Shown: positions 51,180 through 59,160 of the stretch, one piece after another
Layout: the number at the start of each line of letters is the position of its first letter
Position numbering within the stretch: position 1 is the stretch's first letter
Assembly: GCA_015277795.1 (NCBI GenBank)
Contig: CP063848.1
Location: 3,286,001-3,350,000, forward strand
Reading direction: 5' to 3'
DNA length: 64,000 nt
Origin: Massilia sp. UMI-21
Lineage (GTDB): Bacteria; Pseudomonadota; Gammaproteobacteria; Burkholderiales; Burkholderiaceae_D
The notes under the pieces: generated by a model
What the model was told of the DNA's origin: nothing
Database searches by the model: none
Seen by the model: only the letters and a program-made list of their open reading frames with translations
Position numbers and translations under genes: made by a program

Positions 51180-51926
51180 ATGACCGAACCTGTCCGCCTC
51201 TCCAAACGTATGTCCGAACTCGGCCTGTCCTCGCGCCGCGAAGCCGATGACTGGATCGCCAAGGGCTGGGTGCGGGTGGACGGCAAGGTGGTCTCGGAGC
51301 TGGGCAGCAAGGTGCTGCCGCACCAGCGCATCACCGTCGAGCGCCAGGCCGCGGCCGAGCAGTCCAAGCGCGTCACGGTCCTGATCAACAAGCCGGTCGG
51401 CTACGTCAGCGGCCAGGCCGAGGACGGCTACAAGCCGGCCGTCACCCTGGTCAAGCCGGAAAACCGCTGGCCGGACGACCCTTCGCCCGAGCAGTTCCAC
51501 CCGACCCAGCTGCGCAGCCTGGTGCCGGCCGGGCGCCTTGACATCGACTCGGTGGGCCTGCTGGTGCTGACCCAGGACGGCCGCATCGCCAAGCAGCTGA
51601 TCGGCGAGAACACGGCGATCGAGAAGGAATACCTGGTGCGGGTGCAGTACAGCAAGCCGGGCACCCTGCCGGACAGCGAGCTGAAAAAGCTCAACCACGG
51701 CCTGTGGATGGACGGCAAACCCTTGCTGCCGGCCAAGGTGCGCTGGCAGAACGAGGACCAGCTCAGCTTCACCCTGAAGGAAGGCCGCAAGCGCCAGATC
51801 CGCCGCATGTGCGACATGGTGGGCCTGAAGGTGATCGGCCTGAAGCGCGTACGCATCGGCCGGGTGAAACTGGGCGACCTGCCGCCGGGGCAGTGGCGTT
51901 ACCTGCGGCCGGACGAGCAGTTCTAA
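51180..51926 (+). CDS. rRNA pseudouridine synthase (RsuA/RluF type)
   Basis: 248 residues. An N-terminal S4 RNA-binding domain ([18 protein letters not shown]) is followed by the RsuA-family catalytic domain, with catalytic Asp in [17 protein letters not shown] and the C-terminal [11 protein letters not shown]. It most resembles RluF (23S rRNA), but RsuA/RluB/RluE are alternatives. It is the last gene before the AT-rich island. Confidence 0.93.
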
Positions 51927-51990
51927 CTGGATCGAATATTCTTGCAAGACGTTTAAAGCATCACCCTTCATTGCACGTCAATCAATTAAT

Positions 51991-53088
51991 ATGAAAAATA
52001 ATTCCTCCAATAATATTGATCAATGGATAAGTGATTTAAAATCCCAGATTGACGGACTGTGGACATTATTATCCCAAAATACTCCAAAAAATATCCAAGG
52101 CAGGCTTCGTAGCGTCGAACATTATTTAGAAATTGTACAGACCGAACATAGCAAACCCGATACAATAGAATCAGATTTACTTCGCCACATACTTACGGTA
52201 ATTGATCGGGCTCATAAACTGTATGAACTAGCCCAACTTACATCGAATAACACTCAGATACAAGTAGCAACTCAAGACCTATACGAAGTCGCGAACGACA
52301 TCACGGAGTGGCTAGATACTAGCAGACCAAAAAATAACGAACCCGTACTCAGCACAATTTCCACGGAAACGCAAAAATTGTCCGCTGGCCTCGACATAAT
52401 GCGCAGTCAGTTTCTGGGAATTCAGAAGGATGCAAACAAGACGCGCCAACTGGTCGAAGAGACAAAGCGACAGGCAAGTGAGACAAGCGCATTGATATCC
52501 TCGTATGAGGATCAGTTAAACGCCTCATTAACTGAAGCATCGCAATCCACTCGACAAATCGTTGAAGAGTTGCTTGAAAAACAAAAAGATGTCGACAATC
52601 TTGTTGGATTGGTCAGCGGCAAAGCAATTGCAGGAAGCTACTCTAAATCAGCAGAACAAGAACGAACAATGGCTAATAGCATGCGGAATGCATCAGTTGG
52701 GCTTATGCTGCTAATCGTCGGTATTATCGCCTATTCGCTTTTTGAAATGGCAAAACCAGATTTCAAATGGCAAACCTCCATACTTCGATTTTTCTTTTCG
52801 CTGGCGCTTTCTGTCCCCGCAGCGTACTTGGCACGCGAGTCAGCGAAACATCGCGAACAGCACTATTCACATTTGAGAATCTCACTAGATCTGCAAGCGA
52901 TTACGCCTTATTTGGCCTCACTACCACCAGATGAGCAAAATAAACTAAAGATCGACGTTGCAAACAAGATATTCGGTGCCGCCCACGTAAACTCGCAAAC
53001 GACGGATTCTTATCCCCTAAACCTCAATGAACTAGTCTTAGCCTTAATCTCAAAGTTACCCTCGACAAAACCAGAGGCTCAGAAATAG
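51991..53088 (+). CDS. Coiled-coil protein with two TM helices, candidate RT partner
   Basis: 365 residues, no family recognised. The N-terminal 115 residues are helical and polar; 120-210 looks like a long coiled coil (many E/K/Q/S heptads, T-E-T-Q-K-L...V-E-E-T-K-R-Q). Two membrane segments follow (about 234-253, ASVGLMLLIVGIIAYSLFEM, and about 262-280), then a C-terminal cytosolic-looking domain (LDLQAITPYLASLPPDEQNKL). The low GC and AT-rich codon use contrast sharply with the neighbours. It converges on the reverse transcriptase with a 1-nt gap. The ATG at 51991 has no obvious Shine-Dalgarno. A membrane-acting toxin or sensor of the RT system is an inference from layout. Confidence 0.75.
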   Translation: MKNNSSNNIDQWISDLKSQIDGLWTLLSQNTPKNIQGRLRSVEHYLEIVQTEHSKPDTIESDLLRHILTVIDRAHKLYELAQLTSNNTQIQVATQDLYEVANDITEWLDTSRPKNNEPVLSTISTETQKLSAGLDIMRSQFLGIQKDANKTRQLVEETKRQASETSALISSYEDQLNASLTEASQSTRQIVEELLEKQKDVDNLVGLVSGKAIAGSYSKSAEQERTMANSMRNASVGLMLLIVGIIAYSLFEMAKPDFKWQTSILRFFFSLALSVPAAYLARESAKHREQHYSHLRISLDLQAITPYLASLPPDEQNKLKIDVANKIFGAAHVNSQTTDSYPLNLNELVLALISKLPSTKPEAQK

Positions 53089-53089
53089 T

Positions 53090-54034
53090 TTACTTATCGC
53101 TAGAATTCATGAGCGCCTCGACTGCACTCGCTCCAAATTTACCTTCTAATTTTGCGAAATAATCTGTGTCAATAACTCTAGCGTGATTGAGGTATCCGAC
53201 TAACGTTCTTTCATTCTTCTTGGCATCGGCACCTAAGATATCGATCAGTTTTAGCTGATTGCTCCAGTAGAAATAAAGAAGTGACTCGATTTTATTTTTC
53301 AAATCACGCCCCAAAGTCACTCGACCATTTGGAAGAATTTGGAGACCTAGTAAAGCTATGCGGCACCCTCGGTGCATCAGTTTGATTTTATCCGCATTAA
53401 TTGTGAAACGTCCCGCGTACAAATCATTCAAGAAGCCGAAAACAATGCTGGGCATAGCCACCACTTCCTCTTTTACATCACCCGATATAACAATATCATC
53501 GCTATATCGCGTATAAACGAGCTGGCGAGCCGAGCAATAGTCCTGCAAGATATTGTCAAAATCAATCAAGCACGCATTACTCAAAGGCGGGGAAGTTGCA
53601 AACCCCGGCGGCAGATAGCCATTCACAGTCACCAACTCAGCAACATTCGTCAAATACAGGTCTAAGTCGGAGATTTCATCAATAGCGCTATTTCTTATAC
53701 AAGCCGCAACAAGATCCCTATCAACCGATGGAAAGAAATTTAGTAGATCTATTTTAATTATGTTCTTCTTTTCCGCATGCGGCCGCACTGCATCAAGCAC
53801 GCTATAGCCTTTACGGTATGAAAATACTACCCCTTCATTGACATGCAACTTCTCAATTATAGTGGACAGTAAAAATAGGTGATAAGCCCGAAGCACGCTA
53901 GTAGCCTCAATAACTTCGCGACCTCTTCCAACATGCTTGATTGAATTCTGAAGGGTATTACACCTCAAGAACTGCTGAAAACTATGTGACCCGCGGAATT
54001 TATTATCAAACAAGCTTTCGAGCGAGTGTGCCAT
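53090..54034 (-). CDS. Retron-type reverse transcriptase
   Basis: 314 residues of the bacterial reverse transcriptase family. RT motifs in order: GRGREVIEA (30s-40s), FSYRKGYSVLDAV (71-83), KIDLLNFFPSVD with catalytic Asp96, LPPGFATSPPLSNACLIDFD (141-160), TRYSDDIVIS with catalytic Asp179-Asp180 (YSDD, a YxDD variant), FTINADKIKLM (210-220), then ALLGLQILPNGRVT where retrons usually have a VTG box. No other domain is fused. Size and motif layout fit retron RTs, but the lost VTG leaves the subclass open. Start ATG at 54034 has no clear ribosome site. Upstream is a highly structured non-coding stretch with a good promoter. AT-rich, unlike flanking genes. Confidence 0.9.
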   Translation of the reverse strand: MAHSLESLFDNKFRGSHSFQQFLRCNTLQNSIKHVGRGREVIEATSVLRAYHLFLLSTIIEKLHVNEGVVFSYRKGYSVLDAVRPHAEKKNIIKIDLLNFFPSVDRDLVAACIRNSAIDEISDLDLYLTNVAELVTVNGYLPPGFATSPPLSNACLIDFDNILQDYCSARQLVYTRYSDDIVISGDVKEEVVAMPSIVFGFLNDLYAGRFTINADKIKLMHRGCRIALLGLQILPNGRVTLGRDLKNKIESLLYFYWSNQLKLIDILGADAKKNERTLVGYLNHARVIDTDYFAKLEGKFGASAVEALMNSSDK

Positions 54035-54067
54035 ACCGAAAAGACAAAAGTTAGAGACAAACTAAGG

Positions 54068-54251
54068 AATTAGCGTAGCCAAGACTGCGTCAGCGCAGTC
54101 CAAAACTGTCTAAACACGGAGGAACAGTGAAGGGAAAACAATTACAAATCGCGCACCCTCACCTGAGGATGCGCGATCGCAACTTAACGAAACGCCGTAG
54201 AGGTCAGCTATTTGACTGGAGCTGCTCCTAGTCGCTGACATAGCGCTAATT
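54068..54251 (-). ncRNA. Candidate retron-like structured RNA upstream of the RT
   Basis: Between the RT start and the DUF488 gene, read on the minus strand: an 8-bp repeat AATTAGCG (54244-54251) that pairs with CGCTAATT (54068-54075), enclosing three hairpins. H1 54203-54239 is a nested stem (GTCAGC/GCTGAC, GACT/AGTC, GGAG/CTCC). H2 54148-54177 is about 13-14 bp (ATCGCGCA/TGCGCGAT plus inner pairs) with a tiny loop. H3 54083-54100 is GACTGCG/CGCAGTC with a 4-nt loop. The outer repeat and a TTAGC at its inner edge resemble retron a1/a2 and the branching region. The predicted -10 overlaps the outer 5' repeat, so exact transcript ends are uncertain. Confidence 0.6.
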
Positions 54252-54275
54252 TATCATAAACGGATGAGTTGTCAA
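54248..54275 (-). promoter_or_regulatory. Promoter for the structured RNA/RT
   Basis: On the minus strand TTGACA (54270-54275), a 16-nt spacer and TAAATT (54248-54253) preceded by TGA, an extended -10. This is the best sigma-70 promoter seen in the window and points toward the hairpin region and the RT. Expected start near 54241. Confidence 0.7.
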
Positions 54276-54475
54276 GGGGAGCGCCATAAAAGCGATCGTG
54301 AGAAGTTAAACATTTGCACGCAGTAATTCACAGTTTTCTGCTGAAAATCGGTCGGCATTTCGTTTCGCGCCATAGCGACGGATTTCGTTAGGCTTGCCGC
54401 GTGACCCAAGCTGGCGACACAGCCGACCGCCTGGGGGCGAAAATGGCGCTCCCGCCTCCCGGAGCCACAACGAGC

Positions 54476-55018
54476 ATGGAACCGGTCTACACCATCGGCC
54501 ACTCGAACCGGCCGATCGAAGAATTCCTGGCATTGCTGCGCGAGCACGGCATCGAACGCGTGCTCGACATCCGCACGGTCGCCAAGTCGCGCCACAACCC
54601 GCAGTTCGGGCAGGACCAGCTGCCCGGCTCGCTCGCCGGTGCCGGCATCGGCTACGAGTACATCCGCGAACTGGGCGGCCTGCGTAAGGCGCGCAACTAT
54701 CCGCCCAACAGCGCCCCGAACGGCGCCTGGCGCAACGCCTCGTTCCGCGGCTATGCCGACCATATGCAGAGCAGCGAATTCAACGAGCAGATCGACCTGC
54801 TGGTGCGCCTGGCGGGCAGCGTGCGCTTCGCCCTGATGTGCGCTGAAGCGGTGCCCTGGCGCTGCCACCGTTCGCTGGTGGCCGATGCGCTGGCGGTACG
54901 CGGGGTGCCGGTCGAGCACATCATAAACCGGGGCAAGACCAGGCCGCATACGCTCACGCCGTTTGCCCGGGTCGACGGCACCCAGATCCTCTATCCGCCG
55001 GAATCGGCGTCGGCCTGA
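54476..55018 (+). CDS. DUF488 family protein
   Basis: 180 residues. The opening VYTIGHSNRPIEEFLALL, followed by VLDIRTVAKSRHNPQF, the ELGG box and a C-terminal CAEAVPWRCHRSLVADAL, define DUF488, a family of unknown biochemical function (a Cys-containing pocket and R-C-H-R-S motif are conserved). ATG at 54476 gives the family N-terminus; an in-frame ATG at 54443 (after GGGGCG) is possible. GC-rich again, so the island ends before it. Confidence 0.9.
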   Translation: MEPVYTIGHSNRPIEEFLALLREHGIERVLDIRTVAKSRHNPQFGQDQLPGSLAGAGIGYEYIRELGGLRKARNYPPNSAPNGAWRNASFRGYADHMQSSEFNEQIDLLVRLAGSVRFALMCAEAVPWRCHRSLVADALAVRGVPVEHIINRGKTRPHTLTPFARVDGTQILYPPESASA

Positions 55019-57213: not shown

Positions 57214-59054
<1,841 letters not shown>

Positions 59055-59160
59055 GTACACCTCTTTGGGTTTCAAGGCCGCTCCGCAAAGCGGCCATCTT
59101 CTCAAAATGGTGTATCAGTTTTCAATCGCTGCCTGTATCAGTTTACAACCGCTGCTGACA

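What the first reader, a model, noticed from the sequence alone, without database searches (positions are those of the whole stretch)
51991..54275. AT-rich island with a retron-type RT, a structured RNA and a convergent coiled-coil membrane protein
A 314-aa reverse transcriptase (catalytic Asp96, Asp179, Asp180) stands alone apart from a hairpin-rich non-coding stretch directly upstream and a 365-aa two-TM coiled-coil protein that converges on it with a 1-nt gap. The whole unit is AT-rich between two GC-rich housekeeping-type genes, so it is probably acquired. Known retrons pair an RT and an msr-msd RNA with an effector in the same direction; here the only partner candidate faces the other way, the VTG box of the RT reads LLG, and the partner fits no family I know. 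This may be an undescribed retron-like defence system. Function is inference; RT and hairpins are seen in the sequence.
Basis: partly seen in the sequence, partly recalled or inferred. Interest (0 to 1): 0.92.

Follow-up and report, generated by a model that had tools for sequence, protein, structure and literature searches.

The report
Retron with a swapped membrane effector
A bacterial defence element that normally pairs a DNA-making enzyme and its RNA with a DNA-cutting protein here appears to have exchanged that protein for an uncharacterised membrane protein, giving what looks like an undescribed variety of a known kind of bacterial immune system.

Summary
Window 51991-54275 is an AT-rich island (GC about 0.43, flank genes 0.67) with a 314-aa reverse transcriptase (RT), a structured RNA upstream of it, and a tail-to-tail 365-aa membrane protein (TM). 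RT and RNA are not a new class: the RT matches PADLOC RT_I-B over its full length (1.5e-94), and a covariance model built from 32 related retron loci without the window finds the RNA (82 bits, E 6e-20). Close RT relatives carry an ATPase-Toprim (OLD-type, I-B1) effector directly downstream: 50 of 80 genomic and 18 of 23 viral loci, the rest being distant RTs or cut off; none of the 103 has the TM gene. The window's genome lacks that effector. These RTs and the window's share one 15-row clade (bootstrap 100) without ATPase-Toprim rows, though nine rows have unknown partners; the TM proteins also share one clade. Best reading: a type I-B1 retron lineage whose nuclease effector was replaced by a two-TM coiled-coil protein. 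Function is untested; the neighbour could be independent.

The parts
51991..53088 (+). 365-aa coiled-coil membrane protein (TM), proposed effector: helical N-terminal part, long helix, two TM helices, conserved segment after TM2
   Evidence: ORF; homologues (alignments); hydropathy; AlphaFold2 model pLDDT 79.7, pTM 0.36; no known family
52690..52749 (+). predicted TM helix 1 (residues 234-253)
   Evidence: Kyte-Doolittle 2.15
52771..52833 (+). predicted TM helix 2 (residues 261-281)
   Evidence: Kyte-Doolittle 1.56
52816..52977 (+). most conserved segment of the TM family, end of TM2 and after it (residues 276-329)
   Evidence: of residues 276-284 all but 280 are invariant in the 32 aligned sequences, 280 nearly so;
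53090..54034 (-). 314-aa retron reverse transcriptase, type I-B1 lineage
   Evidence: PADLOC RT_I-B PDLC02937 1.5e-94 over residues 3-313; ML trees
54133..54248 (-). retron non-coding RNA (msr-msd region); transcript start estimated near 54242
   Evidence: covariance model R1, built without the window: 82.1 bits, E 6.2e-20; only hit in the genome (where 150 of 197 first-look candidates were scored)
54248..54275 (-). sigma-70-like promoter of the RNA (TTGACA, 16 nt, TAAATT)
   Evidence: consensus scan, 10 of 12 (7 sites in the region against a mean of 4.6 in shuffles, so weak alone); the same -35 and -10 positions are conserved before the RNA in 47 relatives
51927..54400 (.). AT-rich island between a pseudouridine synthase-like gene and a DUF488-like gene (family names recalled); ends approximate
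   Evidence: composition; no blastn similarity to this stretch in the loci of 19 relatives fetched at the left flank gene (about 1.5 kb of flank each)

Best explanation
[quoted passage not shown] Proposed working: the RT copies part of the upstream RNA into msDNA; the RT-msDNA complex keeps the membrane protein inactive, probably through its cytoplasmic helical part; a phage product that disturbs the msDNA complex frees it; the membrane protein then oligomerises through its long helix and breaches the inner membrane, ending infection by abortive killing. Shown here: RT family, RNA homology, absence of the usual effector, and (by contig inference) pairing of this RT clade with this clade of TM proteins. 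Inferred: msDNA production, inhibition, trigger, membrane killing, defence.
For: RT_I-B match over the full length. RNA found by a model that excluded it, E 6e-20; 14 of the model's 20 pairs show double changes that keep the pair. Among RT relatives read as DNA, all 50 genomic loci with an RT profile score of 200 or more (49 loci L009-L057 and L061) and 18 of 19 such viral loci (L091 ends at the RT) have the ATPase-Toprim gene downstream (its profile was built from seven of these proteins). The window lacks it, and so does the rest of its genome (best 27.5 bits; three real members 592-624 bits). Five TM/RT pairs share contig length and at least one source tag; within the two clades 5 matches are seen against a mean of 0.019 over 2000 length shifts, never more than 1 (clades chosen after the trees). 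These five RTs and the window's lie in one 15-row clade (bootstrap 100, SH-aLRT 99) without ATPase-Toprim rows, nested among RTs that have it. The partner TM proteins lie in one 20-row clade apart from the 15 TM proteins taken from loci without RT (SH-aLRT 95); P0123/P0124 and P0006/P0014 are sisters in the two trees. TM, RT and RNA share the low GC.
Against: No second RT+TM locus was obtained as DNA: the five pairs rest on equal contig lengths, so distance and orientation there are unknown. 9 of the 15 RT rows and 13 of the 20 TM rows of the two clades have no known partner, and P0015 was counted as linked only because it is nearly identical to P0014. The two trees do not agree everywhere: RT P0207 falls with the window's group, its contig partner P0009 in the other half of the TM clade. 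The TM family also lives without any RT nearby (0 of 39 other TM loci), so it can act alone or with other partners. Convergent order means no shared operon. In Retron-Sda1 the new neighbours defended without RT or ncRNA (PMC12548924, section 10). No significant PDB fold match for the TM protein, and the packing of the model is unsure (pTM 0.36). Classical a1/a2 ends of the RNA were not established.
Confidence: 0.68

Rival explanations
1. The TM gene is an independent accessory (defence or phage-exclusion) gene that sits beside a retron that has lost its own effector; the two do not work together.
For: TM relatives occur in prophages and elsewhere without RT. Convergent orientation. Retron-Sda1: neighbour genes defend without RT or ncRNA (PMC12548924, section 10). 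RT and TM trees agree only in part.
Against: Five further RT/TM contig pairs, all inside one RT clade and one TM clade; a chance neighbour would not be expected in both. RT reading frame, catalytic residues and RNA are intact.
Confidence: 0.21
2. An ordinary I-B1 retron whose ATPase-Toprim effector was lost by deletion or recombination in this lineage only; the TM gene is part of other acquired DNA.
For: The TM gene ends where the effector would start in relatives.
Against: No effector match at the locus or, above the level of ordinary ATPases, in the genome; the window RT groups with TM-linked RTs, not with effector-linked ones.
Confidence: 0.06
3. RT and RNA serve something other than defence (domesticated RT), with the TM protein as a structural or signalling partner.
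For: Nothing measured here shows defence.
Against: Sister lineages carry ATPase-Toprim effectors, and a review places I-B1 retrons with OLD effectors among anti-phage systems (PMC10568477, passages).
Confidence: 0.05

Closest known systems
Type I-B1 retron (RT + ncRNA + downstream ATPase-Toprim, OLD-class effector)
   Same: RT family (PDLC02937), Leu-Gly box, homologous ncRNA with the same stems and promoter placement, ncRNA upstream of the RT on the same strand
   Different: ATPase-Toprim effector absent; a two-TM coiled-coil protein lies tail-to-tail after the RT instead
Retron-Eco6 (Ec48), two-TM accessory protein
   Different: The RT here is best matched by RT_I-B, and the TM protein matches no PADLOC model beyond coiled-coil level; the Ec48 effector itself was not compared by sequence
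Retron-Eco8 (type I-B2, OLD effector)
   Same: Type I-B in the broad sense; its msDNA is thought to sense phage SSB (PMC12904381, passages), a possible model for the trigger
   Different: RT only distantly related (44 bits); OLD effector, placed upstream in I-B2 (PMC10568477, passages)
Retron-Sda1 (type III-A1 ncRNA with HipA/DUF3037 in place of the usual effector)
   Same: Precedent for effector replacement in a retron lineage (PMC12548924, section 10)
   Different: Other type, other genes; and there the new genes defended without the RT
phrog_29215 (phage proteins of unknown function)
   Same: Shares residues 148-332 of the TM protein, including both TM helices (5.8e-9)
   Different: Longer profile (473 positions); no RT link known from these calls

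Membership tests
Retron (general) | RT of the retron clade with intact catalytic Asp residues | tested here: met
   RT_I-B 1.5e-94; D96, D179, D180 invariant in 38 aligned sequences; retron RTs lead the PDB hits
Retron (general) | msr-msd ncRNA next to the RT | tested here: met
   Covariance model built without the window, E 6.2e-20. The model hits 56 of 61 RT loci (24 of the 29 not used to build it) and 0 of 7 control loci; two of the five misses (L061, L106) hold almost no DNA upstream of the RT
Retron (general) | a1/a2 complementary ends of the ncRNA | tested here: inconclusive
   Window has an 8-bp AATTAGCG/CGCTAATT match (6 of 100 shuffles as good); only 2 of 47 relatives do at 5 or fewer of 100 shuffles, and the promoter placement leaves few bases before the first stem
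Retron (general) | branched msDNA made in the cell | not testable with these tools
   needs an experiment
Type I-B1 retron | RT in the I-B1 lineage | tested here: met
   Nested among effector-linked I-B1 RTs
Type I-B1 retron | ATPase-Toprim effector directly downstream | tested here: not met
   The neighbour is the TM gene; best genome-wide match 27.5 bits against 592-624 bits for three members
Ec48-type (two-TM) retron | RT of that type | tested here: inconclusive
   Best PADLOC RT model is RT_I-B, 314.8 bits, next RT_II-A, 164.8; the model that stands for Ec48 was not identified among the 25 shown of 67
Ec48-type (two-TM) retron | effector homologous to the Ec48 two-TM protein | tested here: inconclusive
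   No PADLOC model matches the TM protein beyond coiled-coil level; direct comparison with the Ec48 protein not made
Group II intron RT | match to the group II maturase family | tested here: not met
   35.5 bits against a cut-off of 300

The most novel reading that the evidence does not exclude
A distinct retron subtype: the sensing half (RT and ncRNA) of type I-B1 retrons has been kept while the DNA-cutting effector was exchanged for a membrane-acting coiled-coil protein from a family also used as prophage cargo, so that one retron sensor now drives a different killing mechanism.
Probability: 0.58. Interest if true: 0.75.

Novelty: new variant of a known kind. Interest (0 to 1): 0.62.

Why it matters
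If true, it shows that a retron sensor (RT plus msDNA) can be coupled to a mechanistically different weapon, membrane breach instead of DNA cleavage. Because relatives with the OLD-type effector exist, the trigger and the effector interface could be told apart by comparing the two, which makes the open question of how retron complexes hold and release their effectors directly testable. It would also suggest a role in phage conflict for an uncharacterised two-TM coiled-coil family that is found as prophage cargo.

Tried and rejected
Group II intron origin of the RT: rejected by profile scores. The RNA as an Rfam family: no relevant hit (one chance microRNA match, E 0.52). LLG as a novelty: rejected, family-wide. 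Fold search for the TM protein: nothing at E <= 0.001 in PDB; in BFVD one unnamed protein at 2.6e-5 with TM-scores near 0.3; profile search of PDB sequences gave coiled-coil proteins (best 2.7e-5), taken as composition. a1/a2 ends: inconclusive. Search for a second RT+TM locus as DNA: viral contigs with RT and TM alignments, genome contigs with the RT alignment (80 of 177 relatives kept), and whole genomes with the TM alignment: order 6 of 399, family 3 of 294, class 1 of 369, phylum 2 of 398, the own genome counted each time; among the loci fetched none besides the window's has both (whole-genome loci reach only about 1.5 kb beyond the match). The contig-length match P0074/P0126 (1786 bases) was dropped as too short to hold both genes. 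Before the careful tree 11 of the 95 rows were removed as long, redundant or unevenly composed (the list in the script has 12 names, one of which was not in the set); the quick tree with all 95 rows gives the same 15-row clade. Flank repeats of the island: no pair that looks like a target-site duplication. Papers: searches listed no paper on a type I-B retron with a membrane effector or on an inverted I-B ncRNA; the classification paper of Mestre et al. 2020 is not held, so this is only as good as those searches.

Full report
What is there. The window lies in a single-contig genome of 5.30 Mb. Between a pseudouridine synthase-like gene (51180-51926, +) and a DUF488-like gene (ORF 54401-55018, +; family names recalled), a stretch of about 2.4 kb has GC 0.43-0.47 against 0.67 in the two genes. 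It holds the 365-aa TM gene (51991-53088, +), the 314-aa RT gene (53090-54034, -) one base further, and a non-coding stretch upstream of the RT. The left flank gene was found in 36 of 41 genomes, own included; the loci of 19 relatives were fetched, with about 1.5 kb on each side, and none shows blastn similarity to the island. Where both flanks were found, other DNA lies between them: L180 (786 bases), L181 (454), L182 (342, with much of the right gene missing) and L184 (about 1.1 kb). The island is therefore most likely a gain in this lineage. No target-site-like repeats were found.

The RT. It matches PADLOC RT_I-B (PDLC02937) at 314.8 bits over residues 3-313; the next model, RT_II-A, has 164.8 bits. 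NCBIfam gives the retron St85 RT model below its cut-off (169 of 235 bits) and group II intron maturase at 35.5 of 300 bits. Retron RTs lead its PDB matches. The catalytic Asp residues are invariant in 38 aligned sequences (window plus 37 relatives), and so is the Leu-Gly of the 'VTG' box, so LLG is a trait of this family.

The usual partner. A scan of one genome per species found 177 RT relatives and kept 80; a viral scan found 23, some of them the same sequence as a genomic locus. With profiles for RT, TM and the ATPase-Toprim protein (the last built from seven downstream proteins of these loci), 50 of 80 genomic loci and 18 of 23 viral loci have the ATPase-Toprim gene downstream of the RT, usually from a 3-base overlap to a gap of 8 bases. 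These are all 50 genomic loci with an RT score of 200 or more, and 18 of 19 such viral loci; the nineteenth, L091, ends at the RT. The other 30 genomic and 4 viral loci are more distant RTs (scores up to 188). None of the 103 has a TM gene in the DNA held, nor has any of the 12 loci of a further viral scan. Three of the downstream proteins were scanned and match ATPase-Toprim_I-B at 592-624 bits. In the nomenclature quoted by a review, OLD downstream of the RT is type I-B1 (PMC10568477, passages). In the window's own genome the best match to this effector family is 27.5 bits, and the same search also rings in all 14 control genomes, so it is at the level of ordinary ATPases.

The RNA. Upstream regions of I-B1 RTs share a conserved RNA. 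From 32 loci, without the window, an alignment and consensus structure were made: 20 pairs, 14 with at least one double change that keeps the pair. The covariance model hits the window once, at 54248-54133 (-), 82.1 bits, E 6.2e-20, and nowhere else in the genome (150 of 197 first-look candidates scored). Over 69 sources it hits the window, 56 of 61 RT+effector loci and 0 of 7 controls (two other RTs, five TM loci without RT); 32 of the 61 built the model, so 24 of the 29 others are hit; of the five misses L061 and L106 hold almost no upstream DNA. Before the RNA, positions near -42 to -40 (TTG) and -19 to -14 (TANANT) are conserved in 47 relatives, and the window has TTGACA-16-TAAATT there, so the RNA probably starts close to its first stem. 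Classical a1/a2 ends were not established: 2 of 47 relatives have a match that 5 or fewer of 100 shuffles equal, the window's is equalled by 6.

The TM protein. No family in Pfam or NCBIfam reaches its cut-off, and PADLOC gives at most 16.4 bits, typical of coiled coils; a phage family of unknown function matches at 5.8e-9. 239 homologues were found, the best 120 listed. AlphaFold2 gives a helical N-terminal part (residues 5-111), one long helix 120-253 ending in TM1, a second helix 260-310 starting with TM2, and a poorly predicted C-terminus (pLDDT 79.7, pTM 0.36). Foldseek finds no PDB match at E <= 0.001. The best conserved segment starts in TM2 and follows it. Relatives sit as extra genes in Mu-like prophages (type recalled from the neighbouring proteins) and in other places; in 39 TM loci other than the window's, some of them overlapping each other and some with only 1.5 kb of flank, no RT relative was found.

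Do RT and TM belong together? The protein searches print the longest contig of each cluster. Comparing the 119 listed TM clusters (of 239 found, own excluded) with 153 RT clusters (all 80 and the 120 listed of 274, merged, own and one without a length excluded), six pairs share an exact length: 3655, 3373, 3458, 21152, 40442 and 1786. The last is too short for both genes and was dropped. With lengths above 2100, the five matches stand against a mean of 0.72 in 400 shifted controls (maximum 4), so over all clusters the test alone is modest; for the top 17 TM clusters it is 5 against 0.145 (maximum 2). For the 19 TM and 14 RT clusters of the two clades, chosen after seeing the trees, it is 5 against 0.019 (never more than 1 in 2000 shifts). 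In each pair the two proteins also share a source tag. In the ML tree of 84 RTs, the five RTs and the window lie in one clade of 15 rows (bootstrap 100, SH-aLRT 99) that holds no effector-linked RT and is nested among RTs that have the ATPase-Toprim gene (same clade in the 95-row quick tree). In a quick tree of 60 TM proteins, the window's, the five linked ones and P0015 (nearly identical to P0014, its own contig not matched) lie in one clade of 20 rows (SH-aLRT 95), apart from the 15 TM proteins from loci without RT. The branching agrees in part: P0123/P0124 and P0006/P0014 are sisters, and P0196/P0016 lie apart from them in both; but RT P0207 falls with the window's group while its partner P0009 lies in the other half of the TM clade. 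9 of 15 RT rows and 13 of 20 TM rows have no known partner, and the linked rows are not one side of a branch within either clade.

Reading. The simplest account is an exchange of effector in this RT clade: the sensor half of a type I-B1 retron was kept, the OLD-type nuclease was lost, and a TM protein was gained. Effector replacement in retrons has a published precedent, Retron-Sda1 (PMC12548924, section 10), which is also a warning: there the new neighbours defended without RT and ncRNA. Two-TM retron accessory proteins are known from Retron-Eco6/Ec48 (PMC8989520, passages; PMC12904381, passages), so a membrane-acting retron is not new as a principle; this protein family on this RT/ncRNA background is, as far as the searches named under Tried and rejected show. 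The trigger is unknown; Eco8 msDNA is thought to sense phage SSB (PMC12904381, passages), which is a lead for the wider I-B group, not evidence here.

Verdict. Real, coherent, and a new variant of a known kind. The weakest link is that the pairing outside the window rests on contig lengths, not on DNA that I could read; the function is inference throughout.

Noticed in passing
L013, L014, L015, L016, L021, L022, L027, L033, L034, L053, L092 (upstream of the RT): In one clade of type I-B1 RTs (11 of its 11 rows, bootstrap 100) the ncRNA lies on the strand opposite to the RT, i.e. divergently placed; the other 45 relatives hit and the window have it on the RT strand. The paper search made for this listed no description.
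   Followed up: partly
L118, L120, L122, L126, L127 (IMG/VR contigs; downstream side also L124, L125): Members of the two-TM coiled-coil family sit as an extra gene at one position of Mu-like prophages (gene roles recalled), several followed by a second small membrane protein: looks like a cargo slot.
   Followed up: no
own genome C1:962962-964867 (L200:4963-6868, -): A second, ordinary-looking retron: RT_II-A (2e-112) overlapping an NDT_II-A effector gene (9.9e-71).
   Followed up: yes
own genome, RVT_1 matches: Of 16 RVT_1 matches 14 are not the two retron RTs; 11 of these 14 lie in 474-aa frames with equal or nearly equal scores, probably group II intron copies (place, score and frame length seen only).
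   Followed up: no
window 57214-59105 (-): Two ORFs that look like an IS21-type unit (ATPase and integrase-like; names recalled) about 3 kb from the island.
   Followed up: no
L131:522-2631 (-): A two-TM family member is followed 10 bases later on the same strand by a 311-aa uncharacterised protein, a possible other partner for this family.
   Followed up: no
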